Source: Propionibacteriaceae bacterium | GTDB taxonomy: Bacteria > Actinomycetota > Actinomycetes > Propionibacteriales > Propionibacteriaceae | Assembly: GCA_030528545.1 (NCBI GenBank) | Contig: JAUMYR010000151.1 | Location: 1 to 6,199 of the forward strand | Length of the DNA stretch: 6,199 nucleotides | Direction of reading: 5' to 3' | Part shown: in pieces, positions 51 to 6,199 of the stretch | Layout: each line of letters begins with the position of its first letter | Position numbering within the stretch: position 1 is the stretch's first letter | Notes under the pieces: model-generated | The model's database searches: none | Seen by the model: the letters and a program-made list of their open reading frames with translations, nothing else | Told to the model about the DNA's origin: nothing | Position numbers and translations under genes: made by a program

Positions 51-983
51 ATGAGAGCGTTGATCACCGGGATCAGCGGTCAGGACGGCAGTTACCTCGC
101 CGAGTCCCTCAGCGCCGACGGGATCGAGGTATTCGGCACCTACTTCGGCGATGAGCCCACCTGCCTGCCCGCTGGTGTGCAGCTGAGCCCCCTCGACCTC
201 AGCGACCGGCAGCGGCTGGCGACACTCGTCCAGGAGGTCCGGCCAGATCAGGTATTTCACCTGGCCGCTGCGAGTTCGGTCGCGGCGTCCTGGGAGAACC
301 CGGTCGGCACCTGTGAGATCAACGGCACGGCCAGCGTCGCCCTGCTGGAGGCCTGCTGGCAGTCGCAGCGCTCCAGCGGGCAGCCGGTCAGGTTCGTGCA
401 GGCCGCCACCGCGGAGGTCTTCGGGGAGGCCGCACCGCCGCAGACCGAGGAGACCCCGCTGCGTCCGGCCAACCCCTACGGGGCCGCGAAAGCCCTGGCT
501 CATCTGGCCGTCGGGGTCTACCGCGGACGCGGCCTCGGTGCATCCAGCCTCCTGCTGTACAACCACGAGTCGCCCAGGCGTCCCGAGACCTTCGTGAGCC
601 GCAAGATCACCTCGACCGTGGCCCGGATCGCCCGCGGCGAGGCCCGCCAGCTGCGGCTGGGCAACCTGGAGGCGCGTCGCGACTGGGGCTGGGCACCCGA
701 CTATGTTCGGGCCATGCGGTTGGCGGCCGGCGCCGAGCCGGGCGATTTCGTCATCGCGACCGGGGTCTCGCACAGCGTCCGCGATTTCGTCTCGGCCGCT
801 TTCGCCCACGTCGGGATCACCGATTGGGAGCCATATGTCGTTGTCGACCCGGCTTTGTACCGGCCCGTTGATCCGGGCGAACAGGTGGGAGACGCCAGCC
901 GGGCCAGGGAGGTGCTGGGGTGGCGGCCCAGCCTCACCTTCCCCGAACTGGTCGCCGCGATGGTGGAGGCGGACCTGAGATGA
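51..983 (+). CDS. GDP-mannose 4,6-dehydratase-family extended SDR (dehydratase or GDP-4-keto-6-deoxymannose reductase)
   Basis: A 310-residue NAD(P)-dependent sugar-nucleotide enzyme of the cytoplasmic extended SDR family. It shows the Rossmann motif TGISGQDG (residues 6-13), the HLAA strand (70-73), an active-site segment ATAEVFG with T120 and E122, and the catalytic pair Y143-x3-K147 in NPYGAAK. Family signatures of GDP-mannose 4,6-dehydratase follow: NHESPRR (171-177), SRKIT (183-187), RDWG...DYVRAM (210-222) and GD..RAREVLGW.P (280-293). Known Gmd proteins are usually 340-370 residues. This one is about 40 shorter and lacks the RRSS-type cofactor/tetramer loop expected after the first strands, having GTYFGDE there instead. 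Its length and N-terminal half resemble Rmd-type 4-keto reductases. With a likely gmd just upstream (1-bp gap), it could catalyse the second step to a GDP-6-deoxyhexose such as GDP-rhamnose, or be a paralogous dehydratase. The start ATG at 51 has a G-rich stretch (40-44) six bases upstream. Its stop overlaps the next start (ATGA). Confidence 0.85.
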   Translation: MRALITGISGQDGSYLAESLSADGIEVFGTYFGDEPTCLPAGVQLSPLDLSDRQRLATLVQEVRPDQVFHLAAASSVAASWENPVGTCEINGTASVALLEACWQSQRSSGQPVRFVQAATAEVFGEAAPPQTEETPLRPANPYGAAKALAHLAVGVYRGRGLGASSLLLYNHESPRRPETFVSRKITSTVARIARGEARQLRLGNLEARRDWGWAPDYVRAMRLAAGAEPGDFVIATGVSHSVRDFVSAAFAHVGITDWEPYVVVDPALYRPVDPGEQVGDASRAREVLGWRPSLTFPELVAAMVEADLR

Positions 984-2083
984 ACACCCCCACGATCGCT
1001 ATCGCCCATGATTACCTGACCCAGCGCGGCGGTGCGGAACGTGTCGTCCTGGCCATGTCACGGGCTTTCCCCGAGGCCGTGATCTATACCACGCTGTACG
1101 ACCCCGAGGGCACCTACCCCGACTTCGCGTCCGCGACGATCCGCACCTCCTGGCTCAACCGCTTCGGCGTGTTTCGGAGGGATCACCGCAAGGCGCTACC
1201 GCTGCTCGCGCTGGCCTCCGACACCCTGCGCGTGGACGCCGACATCGTGGTGGTCTCCACCAGCGGTTGGGCACACGCCTTCCCGACCCGGGGGCGGCGC
1301 TTCGTCTACTGCCACTCCCCCGCCCGCTGGCTGTATCTGACGAAGACCTATCTAGGTGGGTCGGCTCTGCGCTCGGTCAAGGGAGTCGTGCTGCTGGCAC
1401 TGCGGCCTCTCCTACGCCGCTGGGACCTGAAGCGGGCCCGAGCCGCGGGGACATACGTGGCGAACTCACGAGTGATACGGACCCGGATCCGGGAGTGTTA
1501 CGGCATCGAGGCCGAGGTCTTTCCCGCTCCGCACAGCTTCGACCCGTCGTTACCGGCCGAACCCATCGCGGAACTAGCCGGACGCGAGGGCTATTACCTC
1601 GTGGTGTCGCGCCTGCTGCCCTATAAGAACGTCACCGAAGTGGTGCGAGCTTTCCGCGGGATACCACAGCACCGCCTAGTCATCATCGGAGATGGTCCCC
1701 TCCGCGATGAGCTGCTGGCCGGCTGCCCACCGAACGTGACCATGCTGCGCGGGTTGTCCGACGGACAGATGCGCTACGCCTACCGGAACTGCCGGGCGCT
1801 GATCGCCCCCAGTATCGAGGACTACGGCCTGACTCCGATCGAGGCCGGGGCCTTCGGCAAACCGACGCTGGCGCTAAGGGCGGGCGGCTACCTGGACACC
1901 GTCGCCGAGGGCGTGAGCGGAGCGTTCTTCGAGGCCCCCACCCCGGAGGCGATCGCCGAGGCGGTCGCGGCTGATCACCACGACTGGGACGCCACCGCGA
2001 TCATTGACCACATCGATCAGTTCTCGGAGGCCAGGTTCATCCAGCGATTGCGCGACGAGGTGGCCAAGCTGGCGAATCGCTGA
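980..2083 (+). CDS. Family 4-type (GT-B) glycosyltransferase
   Basis: A 367-residue retaining GT-B glycosyltransferase, expected to transfer a sugar from a nucleotide donor (possibly GDP-mannose or a GDP-6-deoxyhexose, inferred from the neighbours) to a lipid-linked acceptor at the inner membrane face. The N terminus has AHDYLTQRGGAERV (9-22), the glycine-rich acceptor loop seen in WbaZ-like mannosyltransferases. FVYCHSPARWLY (108-119) is a typical second N-domain motif. The C domain carries VVSRLLPYKN (208-217), IIGDGPLR (235-242) and the EX7E donor motif E280-DYGLTPI-E288. The ATG at 980 was chosen over an in-frame upstream start at 920. It overlaps the previous stop (ATGA), has GGAGG (965-969) ten bases upstream, and the protein then begins exactly at the family's first beta strand. 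The last 47 bases are shared with the convergent kinase gene. Donor and acceptor cannot be read from sequence. Confidence 0.88.
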   Translation: MNTPTIAIAHDYLTQRGGAERVVLAMSRAFPEAVIYTTLYDPEGTYPDFASATIRTSWLNRFGVFRRDHRKALPLLALASDTLRVDADIVVVSTSGWAHAFPTRGRRFVYCHSPARWLYLTKTYLGGSALRSVKGVVLLALRPLLRRWDLKRARAAGTYVANSRVIRTRIRECYGIEAEVFPAPHSFDPSLPAEPIAELAGREGYYLVVSRLLPYKNVTEVVRAFRGIPQHRLVIIGDGPLRDELLAGCPPNVTMLRGLSDGQMRYAYRNCRALIAPSIEDYGLTPIEAGAFGKPTLALRAGGYLDTVAEGVSGAFFEAPTPEAIAEAVAADHHDWDATAIIDHIDQFSEARFIQRLRDEVAKLANR

Positions 2084-3640: not shown

Positions 3641-4465
3641 ATGATGACTGCCTGGTCTCCTCATTCAGCTGCTGCGACAGCCCGACCGCCTTTCAGTGAC
3701 CCCGCCCCGTCGCTAAAGGAGGACGCCGCCACGCTGGATCTCTACGCTCTGGACACCCCCGTACAGCTCCATCTCACCGGTGAGCGGGTTGGGGAGTTCG
3801 CATCGCAGCTCCGTGCTCTGTGGGCCCGGTGCATTCCCGGCGGCACTCCGTCGCTGGAGCCTTCCGCGATCCACTGGGACACCGGCGAGGACACCCGCCC
3901 TGTCGGCGAGCAGCCCGAGCTGACTAGGCAAATCACGCTCGCTCTCATCAAGACCCAGGTGGGGAAGCTGTTGATGCTGCACGCTGGTGCGGTGTGCCAT
4001 CCAGACACCGGCGAGGCGATCGCTTATGCCGCTGCCGGGGGTACGGGTAAGACCACCCTCACCCGCCTGCTCGCCAGCCGCATGGGTTATCTCACCGACG
4101 AGACGGTCGGGCTGCGCGCCGATGGCTCGATCGCGGCGTACCCGAAACCACTGTCGGTGCGCACTGGCCCACACGACAAGAGGGAATACAGCCCGGACGA
4201 ACTGGGCCTGATCGGCGCCCACCCTAAACCCCGGCTGCACCGTCTCGCGCTGCTGTGCCGCGACGGCGGCCCGCTGCGCGTCGAACGGGTCAGCCTGACC
4301 GAGGCCGTCCTCGCGCTTGCCCCCGAGACCTCTTCGATGGACCGGCTGCCCCGTCCCTTGCACTGGCTTGCCCGGCTCTACGACGACCTGGGCGGCGTCG
4401 TCCGCTACCGCTACGGCGAAGCTTCCGACGTGGCCTCACATATCTGGGAGGAGTTCGGATGCTGA
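3641..4465 (+). CDS. HPr-kinase-like P-loop ATPase (HprK-related kinase)
   Basis: A 274-residue protein related to the catalytic domain of HPr kinase/phosphorylase. It is expected to phosphorylate a Ser/Thr or small-molecule acceptor that is unknown here. Visible features in order: a disordered-looking first 30 residues, LHAGAV (113-118, the LHASAV-type strand before the P-loop), Walker A AAGGTGKTT (131-139, K137), YLTDETVGL (150-158, matching the acidic LSDD metal/catalytic segment of HprK relatives) and YPKPLSVR (167-174), also typical of HprK-related proteins. It lacks the N-terminal DRTGG-type domain of true HPr kinases, so a role in PTS carbon control is unlikely. HprK relatives of this shape are known beside PqqD-like and nucleotidyltransferase genes in EPS loci, and as tailoring kinases in lasso peptide clusters. 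Start: tandem ATGs at 3641/3644 with no ribosome site and a -10 immediately upstream. Its end overlaps the next gene by 7 bp, so translation is probably coupled. Confidence 0.82.
   Translation: MMTAWSPHSAAATARPPFSDPAPSLKEDAATLDLYALDTPVQLHLTGERVGEFASQLRALWARCIPGGTPSLEPSAIHWDTGEDTRPVGEQPELTRQITLALIKTQVGKLLMLHAGAVCHPDTGEAIAYAAAGGTGKTTLTRLLASRMGYLTDETVGLRADGSIAAYPKPLSVRTGPHDKREYSPDELGLIGAHPKPRLHRLALLCRDGGPLRVERVSLTEAVLALAPETSSMDRLPRPLHWLARLYDDLGGVVRYRYGEASDVASHIWEEFGC
4447..4453 (+). promoter_or_regulatory. Ribosome binding site of the first PqqD-like gene
   Basis: GGAGGAG, five bases before ATG 4459, lies inside the last codons of the HprK-like gene. It decides the start of the small gene and rules out the longer upstream frame. 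Confidence 0.75.
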
Positions 4466-4719
4466 GTCTGCACCCCGATGTGGTCGACGTCCTCCTCACC
4501 GACGAGGGCGGCCTCGTCATGCGTCCCAGAGAGTTGCTGCAACTCGGCCCGATCGCGGCCCTAATCGTTTCTTCGTGCGCCACTCCCACGACGCCTAGCG
4601 ACCTCGCCGCGACGTGTGAGGAGGAGTTCGGCGCCCCACCGGGCGGCGACACACTCACCACCGTGACCGCCCTGATCGAAGAACTGACGGCGTCCGGCAT
4701 CCTCGCTGTTATTGACTGA
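4459..4719 (+). CDS. Small PqqD-like protein (possible RiPP-recognition-element fold), paralogue 1
   Basis: An 86-residue protein. The start is fixed by a strong ribosome site and a 7-bp overlap with the preceding stop, although the frame stays open further upstream. The pattern suits the PqqD / RRE fold: a short beta-rich first half (LHPDVVDVLLTDEGGLVMRP), a central helix at about 26-39, a polar helix (47-57, DLAATCEEEFG) and a terminal amphipathic helix (63-80) ending in LTASGIL, the usual 'L...G.L' PqqD ending. Known PqqD-type domains bind leader peptides and present them to a modifying enzyme. By position between an HprK-like kinase and a nucleotidyltransferase, it resembles the PqqD-family proteins of the 'HPr-rel-A' gene set. 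Sequence identity to textbook PqqD is low and the assignment rests on pattern and context. An unrelated small helical partner of the kinase is possible. Confidence 0.65.
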   Translation: MLSLHPDVVDVLLTDEGGLVMRPRELLQLGPIAALIVSSCATPTTPSDLAATCEEEFGAPPGGDTLTTVTALIEELTASGILAVID

Positions 4720-4751
4720 GCTGCTCGCCCTCATCTCGCCCCACCCGGTCC

Positions 4752-4764
4752 TAGGCTGGAGGGG
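4752..4764 (+). promoter_or_regulatory. Possible internal leaderless promoter before the nucleotidyltransferase gene
   Basis: TAGGCT (4752-4757) fits TANNNT and ends six bases before GTG 4764, which would place the transcript start on the start codon. There is no convincing -35 at the correct distance. GGAGGGG (4758-4764) is too close to serve GTG 4764 and about 14 bases from ATG 4779. A single short motif is weak evidence. Confidence 0.3.
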
Positions 4765-5642
4765 TGAACGAATCAGGGATGTCGGCGTGGCCTCGGGTTC
4801 AGCTGGCTCATGCGACCGCGCAGGTGATCGCTGAGGACATCGGCTCCCGTGTGCTGCACATTAAAGGACCGGCTCTCGACCCGTCCCTGCTGCATCGTCT
4901 GGACGGCGATGTGAAGCCCCGCGGCAGCTCAGATGCCGACCTCCTCGTCGAGCCCGGCCGGGTCGGCGACCTGGTAGAGGCCCTGACACGGCACCGTTTC
5001 CGGCTGGTCACGCATTTCGAAACTGGCTCCGCGTTCGAGCACGCGGCCAGCCTGTGGCACGAGAAGCTGGGCTGGGTCGATGTGCACCGCCGGTTCCCCG
5101 GGATTGGGATGCCTGCCGCCGAAGCCTTCGACCGCCTCTGGGCCCACCGGCAGCAGATCCGCATCGCTGGATACCCCTGTGCAGCCCCGTCCCGCCTGGC
5201 CCAACGCCTAATGCTGCTACTACACGCGGCCCGCGGCGGTGGCGTCCACACCGCCGATGTGGCACGGGCCTGGGGGGACGCCACCACCGACGAGAGGCGG
5301 GCAGTCTCGGTGCTGGCGAGGGAACTAGCCGCCGAGGTTGGTCTGGCGGCCGCGACCGGCGGCTTGGACGCCTATGCCGACCACCCTGAGTACGAGCTGT
5401 GGCGTCACTTCTCCACCGGGGAGCGCAGCCGGATCGGCGAGTGGCGGGCGCGGCTGAAGGCCGCCCCGGACGCCAGGACGGCGCTCAAGCTGGCGTCCCG
5501 GGCGGTGCGGGTGAACACCGACGCGCTGGCGATGAAGCTACACCGCCGCCCCACGAGATCCGAAGTAGTCCGGGAGTTCGGCCACCGGCTGTGGACTAGC
5601 GTCAACGAAATCGCCCACCGAGCTCGCCGGGGGCGGCCATGA
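4764..5642 (+). CDS. NTP_transf_5-type nucleotidyltransferase family protein
   Basis: A 292-residue protein of the polymerase-beta-like nucleotidyltransferase fold, of the PF14907 (NTP_transf_5) kind. Motifs: HIKGPAL (32-38, the family's early 'KG..L' motif); RGSSDADLLV (53-62), the GSxxDxD signature whose D57 and D59 bind catalytic metal; and VDVHRRF (105-111), whose D106 is the third carboxylate. The C-terminal two thirds are helical, with LLLHAARGG (151-159) typical of the family. Relatives occur in EPS/exosortase loci and in lasso peptide clusters with an HprK-like kinase, where one was reported to extend a phosphorylated peptide with hexoses. Most remain uncharacterised. Substrate here is unknown. 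GTG 4764 is kept as start because a -10-like box fits a leaderless transcript. ATG 4779 (five codons in) is a real alternative. It follows a 44-bp gap, the only one in this gene run, and ends in an ATGA overlap with the next gene. Confidence 0.85.
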   Translation: MNESGMSAWPRVQLAHATAQVIAEDIGSRVLHIKGPALDPSLLHRLDGDVKPRGSSDADLLVEPGRVGDLVEALTRHRFRLVTHFETGSAFEHAASLWHEKLGWVDVHRRFPGIGMPAAEAFDRLWAHRQQIRIAGYPCAAPSRLAQRLMLLLHAARGGGVHTADVARAWGDATTDERRAVSVLARELAAEVGLAAATGGLDAYADHPEYELWRHFSTGERSRIGEWRARLKAAPDARTALKLASRAVRVNTDALAMKLHRRPTRSEVVREFGHRLWTSVNEIAHRARRGRP

Positions 5643-5902
5643 CCTATTCTGTGCCACCGCACCTAGGCCACGTCATCGATGAAGAGGCCGACAGGGTCTA
5701 CCTCATGGTCCTGCCCGATGGCGATCCGCAGGTGCTCCAGGGCACCGCATACGCCATCTGGTGTGCTGCGATCTCGGGAACCGATCCCGTCGCAGCCGTG
5801 ACAGAAGCGTTCCCGGACGAGCCGTACGACCTCGTCAGCACACAAACCATCGAGTTCATCGACCAGCTGATCGCGGCGGGTTACCTGACGGAGAGACCAT
5901 GA
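5639..5902 (+). CDS. PqqD-family protein (RiPP-recognition-element fold), paralogue 2
   Basis: An 87-residue protein with a clear PqqD pattern. It opens with a beta hairpin (HVIDEEADRVYLMVLPDG, 11-28), continues with the helix motif QVLQGTAYAIW (31-41, the 'L.gta..IW' signature) and an acidic linker, and ends with a terminal helix IEFIDQLIAAGYL (71-83). PqqD domains typically bind a peptide substrate or a partner enzyme. It is translationally coupled on both sides by ATGA overlaps, with the nucleotidyltransferase upstream and the tyrosine phosphatase downstream. It is clearly distinct in sequence from the PqqD-like protein at 4459, so this operon has two different adaptors, plausibly one for each enzyme (kinase and nucleotidyltransferase). 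The partner and peptide are not visible. Confidence 0.8.
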   Translation: MTYSVPPHLGHVIDEEADRVYLMVLPDGDPQVLQGTAYAIWCAAISGTDPVAAVTEAFPDEPYDLVSTQTIEFIDQLIAAGYLTERP

Positions 5903-6199
5903 GCGAACCATTCCACCTGTTATTCGTATGCACCGCGAACATCTGCCGGTCCCTCTATGCCGAGGGGCGCGCGCGCCAGCTTCTGCCCACCGGTAGCCCG
6001 GTGACGGTCAGCAGCGCCGGCACCCACGGTTTCGTCGGCCATTCCCTGGATGCCGACATGGCGGCCTGCCTGCTCGCCCACGGCCCACAGGCCCCTTTGC
6101 GCAGCCGCAGGCTGGATTCGGGAATCCTGAGCGAAGCCGACCTAGTGCTCACCGCAGAATCGGCACACCGCAATTTCATCGTTGAGGAGTGGCCGACCG
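5899..6199 (+). CDS. Low-molecular-weight protein-tyrosine phosphatase (3' partial)
   Basis: One hundred codons are visible before the window ends without a stop. The N terminus LLFVCTANICRS (7-18) is the LMW-PTP phosphate loop C-X5-R-S, with nucleophile C11 and R17. SSAGTHGFVGHSLDADM (38-54) and ADLVLTAESAHR (80-91) are family-typical second and third motifs. The catalytic D-P-Y/D-P-F loop expected near residues 115-125 lies outside the window. Such enzymes dephosphorylate BY-kinases of the Wzc type. Here the phosphatase is the last visible gene of the HprK-like/PqqD operon, while its presumed kinase partner is transcribed divergently at 3563. The start overlaps the preceding stop (ATGA) and GGAGAG (5890-5895) precedes it. 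Arsenate reductases share the fold, but context favours a phosphatase. Confidence 0.9.
   Translation, partial: MSEPFHLLFVCTANICRSLYAEGRARQLLPTGSPVTVSSAGTHGFVGHSLDADMAACLLAHGPQAPLRSRRLDSGILSEADLVLTAESAHRNFIVEEWPT

What the first reader, a model, noticed from the sequence alone, without database searches (positions are those of the whole stretch)
3641..6199. Actinobacterial HprK-like / PqqD / nucleotidyltransferase / PqqD / LMW-PTP operon of unknown function in a polysaccharide locus
Seen: five consecutive same-strand genes, nearly all overlapping, encode an HprK-related kinase lacking the DRTGG domain, two PqqD-like proteins, an NTP_transf_5 nucleotidyltransferase and a tyrosine phosphatase. 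Established: an uncharacterised HprK-related/PqqD/nucleotidyltransferase gene set ('HPr-rel-A') accompanies EPS and exosortase loci in Gram-negative bacteria. Inference: this is an actinobacterial counterpart that phosphorylates, and perhaps nucleotidylates or glycosylates, an unknown peptide, protein or lipid-linked acceptor during surface polysaccharide assembly. The phosphatase ties it to phospho-regulation.
Basis: partly seen in the sequence, partly recalled or inferred. Interest (0 to 1): 0.8.

Follow-up and report, generated by a model that had tools for sequence, protein, structure and literature searches.

The report
Kinase system tagging exported surface proteins
Four of these five neighbouring genes look like a cellular assembly line that puts phosphate, and probably a further group, onto one serine of a whole class of exported bacterial surface proteins, recognised by a short tag hidden in their export signal; if true, this explains what a widespread uncharacterised gene set beside bacterial slime-coat genes is for.

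Summary
The five genes are real (3641-6199): a PEPCK/HprK-clan kinase, PqqD-type RRE 1, an NTP_transf_5 nucleotidyltransferase, RRE 2 and a truncated LMW tyrosine phosphatase, in a polysaccharide locus. Relatives show two modules: kinase+RRE1 (adjacent or fused in 48 of 49 loci) and NTP+RRE2. The key finding lies outside the window. Genomes with the kinase encode Tat-exported proteins sharing one leader, RRxxxKGAAWAxPx[VIL]...AxA|xS: in three families 97 of 111 kinase-positive genomes, against 5 of 275 negative ones, often inside the cassette. WxxPx[VIL] is the published binding motif of lasso-peptide RREs, and RRE2's best sequence match among solved structures is lasso RRE TbiB1. A Ser/Thr stands 14 residues after the motif's proline, just past the signal-peptidase site. 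In Bacillota 'LPP' peptides (2026) the same kind of kinase phosphorylates a serine at almost the same place. Best reading: an actinobacterial counterpart of LPP acting on full-size exported proteins, 1 to 35 per genome. Phosphorylation is inferred by homology; the NTP step and attachment to polysaccharide are weaker inferences. The phosphatase more likely serves the neighbouring BY-kinase. The window itself holds no Tat substrate gene.

The parts
51..983 (+). GDP-mannose 4,6-dehydratase-like SDR (polysaccharide context)
   Evidence: PF16363 306.7 bits; TIGR01472 gmd 266.5 bits, below its 415 cut-off
980..2083 (+). GT4-type glycosyltransferase (polysaccharide context)
   Evidence: PF00534 80 bits
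2037..3563 (-). Wzz/BY-kinase polysaccharide co-polymerase with tyrosine autokinase
   Evidence: TIGR01007 173 bits, cut-off 108; relatives in 28 of 49 kinase loci
3641..4465 (+). PEPCK/HprK-clan kinase; invariant H114, K137 (GTGKTT), D153-E154 (YLTDET), K169PLS
4459..4719 (+). PqqD-type RRE 1, the kinase's partner
   Evidence: PF05402 27.3 bits; adjacent or fused to the kinase in 48 of 49 loci; profile hits lasso RRE 9x90 and PqqD 3g2b at E about 1e-3
4764..5642 (+). NTP_transf_5 nucleotidyltransferase, likely catalytic D57xD59 and D106xH108
   Evidence: PF14907 41.2 bits; conserved residues; model pLDDT 95, fold like MenT1/ANT(2'')-Ia, weaker FKRP
5639..5902 (+). PqqD-type RRE 2, the nucleotidyltransferase's partner
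   Evidence: profile A7 best PDB hit lasso RRE TbiB1 5v1u E 1.7e-8; directly downstream of NTP in 25 of the 31 loci with NTP (counted)
5899..6199 (+). LMW protein-tyrosine phosphatase, cut by the window end; probably the BY-kinase's phosphatase
   Evidence: PF01451 60.7 bits; CTANICRS loop

Best explanation
A two-module RRE-guided modification system for Tat-exported surface proteins. Step 1 (inferred from the motif match): RRE-1 and RRE-2 bind the W-x-x-P-x-[VIL] motif buried in the hydrophobic part of a Tat signal peptide, while the protein is in the cytoplasm. Step 2 (inferred from LPP and paeninodin): the kinase held by RRE-1 phosphorylates, perhaps repeatedly, the Ser/Thr that stands 14 residues after the motif's proline, residue +2 of the mature protein if signal peptidase cuts at AxA. 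Step 3 (inferred, weaker): the NTP_transf_5 enzyme held by RRE-2 adds a nucleotidyl, glycosyl or polyol-phosphate group to that phosphate, as PsmN is reported to put hexoses on phosphoserine. Step 4 (inferred from the signal): the folded, modified protein leaves by Tat and the leader is cut off, leaving the decorated residue near the new N-terminus. Step 5 (speculative): that group joins the protein to the exopolysaccharide made by the surrounding genes, an N-terminal anchor. Shown here: the gene modules, the co-occurrence, the linkage, the motif and the spacing. Not shown: any chemistry, and any substrate gene in the window's own genome.
For: Modules: kinase+RRE-1 adjacent or fused in 48 of 49 loci; NTP in 31 of 49, RRE-2 in 30 of those 31 loci, directly downstream of NTP in 25. 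Co-occurrence with the Tat leader (A3, E<=1e-6): family of Knoellia sp. Soil729 (119 genomes): kinase and Tat 56, kinase only 8, Tat only 1, neither 54; NTP and Tat 54, NTP only 2, Tat only 3, neither 60. Family of Cutibacterium avidum (147): 29/6/3/109. Family of Rathayibacter sp. VKM Ac-2857 (120): 12/0/1/107. Class-wide sample (197): 9 Tat-positive, 7 of them with NTP, all 9 with the kinase. Linkage: 28 of 150 transcribed Tat hits within 5 kb of kinase or NTP, about 1 expected; without the genomes I took for seeds, 17 of 49 genomes; 25 of 49 kinase-selected loci hold one. Motif: W and P in 101 of 101, P+2 = V64 I31 L4 A2, P+14 = S95 T5 R1; with a model cut before the Ser, the 15 non-seed hits with WxxP give S12 T2 C1; 6 hits without WxxP were left out. 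RRE identity: RRE-2 profile best hits are TbiB1, PbaB1 and LppB chains. Precedent: PMC13381572 sections 6, 7 and 12: HprK-like LppK with RRE and NTP transferase, leader YxxPxV..., phosphorylated Ser3, S3A abolishes it, clusters in capsule loci. PsmK/PsmN passage in the review PMC9266682. Second class: Acidimicrobiia locus L050 carries an HprK-like kinase, two PqqD, NTP_transf_5, UDP-sugar dehydrogenase and a GAAWAAPQV Tat protein.
Against: No experiment. The window has no Tat substrate gene and no genome is held for it. 14 of 111 kinase-positive genomes lack the Tat leader at E<=1e-6 (3 of 20 at E<=1e-3), and 5 Tat-positive genomes lack a detectable kinase even at E<=1e-3. The co-occurrence tests ignore phylogeny, though the pattern repeats in three families and a class-wide sample. 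Motif invariance is partly built in, as the hits were found with a model containing W, P and S. My controls for the +2 Ser are weak. LppN showed no activity in its heterologous host, and for PsmN the review leaves open whether it glycosylates or nucleotidylates. The Acidimicrobiia leader has no Ser/Thr at P+14. The kinase has D-E where lasso kinases are described with an HKDD motif. The RRE motif sits in the Tat hydrophobic region, so RRE and Tat translocase would have to take turns.
Confidence: 0.7

Rival explanations
1. The kinase/RRE/NTP set modifies a small peptide, lipid or sugar of exopolysaccharide assembly; the Tat proteins are merely matrix proteins kept in the same genomes and loci.
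For: Many loci are polysaccharide loci; paeninodin and LPP substrates are small peptides; 14 of 111 kinase-positive genomes lack the Tat leader.
Against: The Tat leaders carry the RRE-binding motif and a fixed hydroxyl residue, which mere neighbours need not; NTP tracks the Tat leader almost one to one (54 both, 2 and 3 exceptions of 119).
Confidence: 0.15
2. The system is an export checkpoint: RREs act as Tat leader chaperones and phosphorylation times export or cleavage, with no lasting decoration.
For: In LPP, loss of LppK left processed peptide barely detectable; a type I signal peptidase gene lies within 0.6 kb of the kinase in 7 of 49 loci.
Against: The conserved Ser/Thr is on the mature side of the expected cleavage site, and a dedicated nucleotidyltransferase with its own RRE suggests a permanent group.
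Confidence: 0.1
3. A carbon-regulation kinase of the HprK/P type acting on HPr, with the LMW-PTP as its phosphatase.
For: Same broad fold class as PEPCK, to which HprK is known to be related (kinship recalled).
Against: No HPr-kinase Pfam hit in the window protein; tied to an RRE in 48 of 49 loci; no HPr family among the 20 neighbour families annotated, though HPr was not searched for.
Confidence: 0.03

Closest known systems
Linear polyphosphorylated peptides (LPP; LppK/LppB/LppN/LppS/LppD), Paenibacillus, PMC13381572
   Same: HprK-like kinase, discrete RRE, NTP transferase, aromatic-xxP leader motif, Ser 15 residues after the Pro (14 here) and just past a signal-peptidase site, home in capsule loci
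   Different: Here Actinomycetota; two RREs; the leader is a Tat signal with W instead of Y; substrates are full-size exported proteins (median mature length 153; up to 35 genes per genome), many of them away from the cassette; no dedicated exporter noted; the paper calls LPP and paeninodins restricted to Bacillota
Paeninodin-type lasso peptides (PadeK/ThcoK, PsmK/PsmN, B1 RRE)
   Same: Kinase phosphorylating a Ser of the precursor, PsmN-type nucleotidyltransferase, WxxPxL-type leader bound by an RRE
   Different: No macrolactam synthetase or B2 peptidase among the 20 neighbour families annotated; Ser next to the leader, not at the C-terminus
HPr-rel-A system (TIGR04352/TIGR04353)
   Same: HprK-related kinase with PqqD protein near polysaccharide genes (context recalled)
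   Different: Window proteins score far below both cut-offs
Exosortase/PEP-CTERM and similar sorting systems (recalled)
   Same: Works like one: one machinery, a short tag shared by many unrelated exported proteins
   Different: Tag is N-terminal and in a Tat leader; the enzymes are a cytoplasmic kinase and nucleotidyltransferase, no transpeptidase

Membership tests
LPP system | HprK-like kinase in the cluster | tested here: met
LPP system | discrete RRE domain | tested here: met
   RRE-2 profile hits TbiB1 E 1.7e-8, PbaB1 9x90 E 6.5e-5, LppB 9x8z E 7.7e-5 (chain names); RRE-1 weaker
LPP system | NTP transferase of the LppN/PsmN kind | tested here: inconclusive
   PF14907 met and minimal-nucleotidyltransferase fold; no direct comparison with LppN or PsmN
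LPP system | precursor leader with [Y/W]xxPx[L/V/I/F/A] | tested here: met
   WxxPx[VILA] in 101 of 101 Tat leaders, in relatives only; no precursor gene lies in the window
LPP system | phosphorylated Ser next to the leader cleavage site | not testable with these tools
   Ser/Thr at P+14 in 100 of 101; phosphorylation itself unknown
LPP system | SipW-like signal peptidase gene in the cluster | tested here: inconclusive
   Peptidase_S26 genes in 9 of 49 kinase loci, 7 within 0.6 kb of the kinase; not shown to be SipW-like
LPP system | MsbA-like exporter in the cluster | tested here: inconclusive
   none among the 20 neighbour families annotated; not searched for directly
LPP system | found in Bacillota | tested here: not met
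   the 49 loci come from Actinomycetota by record title
HPr-rel-A | TIGR04352 and TIGR04353 above cut-off | tested here: not met
   22.9 of 200 and 14.4 of 35 bits
HPr kinase/phosphorylase | Hpr_kinase_C domain | tested here: not met
   no hit at E<=1 for the window protein; the distant relative in L050 gives PF07475 E 0.0027, below cut-off
Lasso peptide cluster | macrolactam synthetase and B2 peptidase | tested here: inconclusive
   absent from the 20 neighbour families annotated; not searched for directly

The most novel reading that the evidence does not exclude
A new N-terminal protein-anchoring pathway of Actinomycetota: an RRE-binding WxxP tag hidden in Tat signal peptides directs kinase and nucleotidyltransferase to a fixed Ser/Thr at mature position +2, and the resulting phospho-linked group joins up to dozens of surface proteins per genome to the exopolysaccharide.
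Probability: 0.35. Interest if true: 0.93.

Novelty: new variant of a known kind. Interest (0 to 1): 0.85.

Why it matters
It gives a testable function to an uncharacterised gene set of actinobacterial polysaccharide loci, and to a large group of Tat-exported proteins of mostly unknown domains (no Pfam family in 10 of 10 scanned; an NCBIfam family above cut-off in 2 of 20). It would extend RRE-guided chemistry, known from small peptides, to whole families of folded exported proteins, and show one peptide stretch serving as both Tat signal and RRE leader. It also offers a lead on what LPP and paeninodins, whose roles are called unknown, do beside capsule loci: phosphate-linked attachment.

Tried and rejected
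Plasmid search with the kinase found nothing; viral contigs gave no relative. PDB sequence search with the kinase profile listed no HprK chain, with NTP nothing; HprK chains are not among the rows shown in the fold searches, which excludes nothing. Pfam found no family at E<=0.01 in ten Tat proteins. NCBIfam scans of twenty others or the same (ten each, twenty different proteins) gave only choice-of-anchor G above cut-off, in two. A control set of other Tat proteins from 30 kinase-negative genomes was poor: of 29 loci read only 7 signals passed my filter, 6 of them lipoprotein-like by eye. A second control, 29 signal-peptide-like ORFs from the held loci, had S/T at +2 in 14%, but the set is crude and contains membrane proteins. 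The iterated kinase profile drifted to other P-loop proteins and was dropped for the A1 profile. Some PqqD hits inside the kinase gene are frame artefacts and were not counted. Paper searches for HprK+PqqD+nucleotidyltransferase, HPr-rel-A, twin-arginine+PqqD+kinase, choice-of-anchor+twin-arginine, HprK+RRE and RRE+twin-arginine listed no account of this actinobacterial system, judged from titles, abstracts' beginnings and, for PMC13381572 alone, its text in part; the library lacks most subscription papers. Papers: PMC13381572 seen as sections 6, 7, 12 and passages; PMC9266682 as passages; all others as search listings only.
Full report
What is there. The window's right half encodes five + strand genes with three overlapping junctions: kinase, PqqD-1, NTP_transf_5 protein, PqqD-2 and the start of an LMW-PTP. 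The left half is a polysaccharide locus: a gmd-like dehydratase, a GT4 glycosyltransferase and, on the other strand, a Wzz/BY-kinase. No whole genome is held for the window. The nearest kinase relative listed is 71% identical (a Propionibacteriaceae MAG by its source name).

Conservation. A profile of 38 kinases (A1) found 51 loci in the genome collection, 49 of them clear relatives, in Propionibacteriaceae, Knoellia/Terrabacter-type, Nocardioides-type and Kocuria/Zhihengliuella/Rathayibacter organisms by record title. The other two are L050, a distant relative discussed below, and L051, a weak partial match. Within the held flanks of the 49 loci PqqD-1 is adjacent to or fused with the kinase in 48 (all but L011), NTP is present in 31, PqqD-2 in 34 (30 of the 31 with NTP, directly downstream of it in 25), LMW-PTP in 20, BY-kinase in 28, and all five in 17. 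Several contigs end early, so absences are soft. The exact window order is seen in L017, L019 and L035, and in L006 and L038 with one inserted gene. Six kinases in these loci carry the PqqD domain as a C-terminal fusion, as do P0091 and P0107 by eye. So the unit is two enzyme+RRE pairs, kinase+RRE-1 and NTP+RRE-2. The phosphatase is looser: the BY-kinase is present in 15 of its 20 loci and in 13 of the other 29 (counted). Twenty neighbour families were annotated: many are polysaccharide genes, and some loci stand beside housekeeping genes.

The substrate clue. Reading gaps between cassette genes in L002 and L038 showed Tat-signal proteins; the gap in L006 held another gene. A scan found the same leader, RRxxxKGAAWAxP...AxAxS, in many loci but not in the window. 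In L002, L005 and L010 it lies downstream of NTP-RRE-2, in Terrabacter-type loci downstream of kinase-RRE-1, in L038 between RRE-1 and NTP, in L001 downstream of the phosphatase. Of 20 kinase-bearing genomes examined, 17 have the leader at E<=1e-3; in four (G001, G002, G004, G015) the only copy found lies in the cassette locus.

Co-occurrence. With kinase E<=1e-10 and leader E<=1e-6: family of Knoellia sp. Soil729, 119 genomes: both 56, kinase only 8, leader only 1, neither 54. Family of Cutibacterium avidum, 147 genomes: 29, 6, 3, 109. Family of Rathayibacter sp. VKM Ac-2857, 120 genomes: 12, 0, 1, 107. Together 97 of 111 kinase-positive and 5 of 275 kinase-negative genomes have the leader. 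NTP in the first family: both 54, NTP only 2, leader only 3, neither 60; the 8 kinase-only genomes also lack NTP. A class-wide sample of 197 genomes has 9 with the leader; 7 of them have NTP and all 9 have the kinase. At E<=1e-3 the kinase stays absent from the 5 leader-only genomes G323, G369, G422, G456 and G548, and from the NTP-positive, kinase-negative G081, G300 and G317. Completeness of these genomes is not given. Fisher tests treat genomes as independent, which they are not.

Linkage. Of 150 leader hits transcribed (its listing is cut; 56 of 57 genomes), 28 lie within 5 kb of a kinase or NTP hit, in 24 genomes; about 1 was expected. Leaving out seven genomes that I took to have supplied seeds, 17 of 49 remain linked. 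Among the 49 kinase-selected loci 25 hold a leader hit, by my count of the listing at E<=3e-3.

The motif. In 101 aligned leaders (E<1e-3, duplicates removed) W and the P three residues later are invariant, P+2 is V 64, I 31, L 4, A 2, and P+14 is S 95, T 5, R 1 (with one sequence fewer, gives S 94, T 5, R 1). Neighbouring positions have far fewer S/T, at most 39%. The hits were found with a model holding these columns. With the model cut before the Ser, 37 hits in the loci tested divide into 16 seed-like (all S), 15 others with WxxP (S 12, T 2, C 1, the C at E 0.34) and 6 without WxxP, left out. Lasso RREs bind [Y/W]xxPx[L/V/I/F/A], and LPP leaders read YxxPxVLxHQxIxFETxxS (PMC13381572, section 6), which puts that Ser at P+15. 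In LPP the HprK-like kinase adds one to four phosphates to Ser3 just past the leader cleavage site, S3A abolishes this, S3T and S3Y were not phosphorylated, and without the kinase little processed peptide appears (section 7). Y/W and P matter for RRE binding (passages). The paper calls LPP and paeninodins Bacillota-restricted, often beside capsule loci, and of unknown role (section 12). PsmN is reported to put hexoses on phosphoserine in pseudomycoidin, with nucleotidylation not excluded (review passage, PMC9266682).

Substrates. Of 101 leader proteins, 2 have a C-terminal hydrophobic segment by a crude test, 8 any such segment in the mature part, 8 an LPxTG-like string near the end, and the median mature length is 153; some are cut by locus ends. 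Two of the 20 proteins scanned with NCBIfam are choice-of-anchor G proteins, a name given to domains found with various surface anchors (recalled); the tails printed show no LPxTG, though one (L049) is among the two with a hydrophobic end. One genome, G538, lists 35 leader matches. This fits a multi-substrate sorting system whose anchor, if any, would be N-terminal. That last step is inference only.

Reach. L050, an Acidimicrobiia MAG, carries PqqD (36.5 bits), NTP_transf_5 (108.6), an HprK-like kinase (PF07475 E 0.0027, below cut-off), a second PqqD (48.7), a UDP-sugar dehydrogenase and a Tat protein with GAAWAAPQV. It came in through the kinase alone; its leader lacks Ser/Thr at P+14.

Verdict. 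The system works like LPP maturation, moved to Tat-exported proteins. I call it a new variant of a known kind, confidence 0.7 for RRE-guided phosphorylation of the +2 residue, less for what NTP adds, and about one third for attachment to polysaccharide.

Noticed in passing
L012, L013, L016, L021, L023, L045, L047 (also L018, L019 further off): A type I signal peptidase gene (Peptidase_S26) lies within 0.6 kb of the kinase in seven loci of two distant groups, recalling LppS of LPP.
   Followed up: partly
L050:127-7524: An Acidimicrobiia polysaccharide locus with distant versions of kinase, PqqD and NTP_transf_5 and a GAAWAAP Tat protein.
   Followed up: partly
L009:4536-6969: A second, divergent cassette (NTP, two PqqD, weak kinase hit) near the first.
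   Followed up: no
G362, G426, G433, G451: Partial kinase matches interrupted by an in-frame TAG; G362 and G426 have no other kinase hit and no Tat leader.
   Followed up: no
G016, G232, G279, G281, G284, G296, G315, G320: Genomes with the kinase but neither NTP nor Tat leader at the thresholds used: perhaps a second use of kinase+RRE-1.
   Followed up: no
leader proteins such as L002, L005, L025, L026, L034: Many Tat proteins share a CKxPG-like motif after the mature N-terminus (C 40, P 42, G 51 of 101 in the aligned columns).
   Followed up: no
L028 and L043: Kinase followed by two PqqD genes and a Tat protein, without an NTP in the held DNA.
   Followed up: no
L032:11913-13589 and seven other loci: A MauE-domain protein recurs in eight kinase loci.
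   Followed up: no
kinase relatives such as P0011, P0014, P0059: Some carry a precomputed Pfam domain PF27840.1, which was not found in the window kinase with the Pfam copy here; what that family is was not looked up.
   Followed up: no
window 51-983: The gmd-like dehydratase scores below the gmd cut-off (266 of 415 bits) and is short (310 aa), so its sugar product is open.
   Followed up: no
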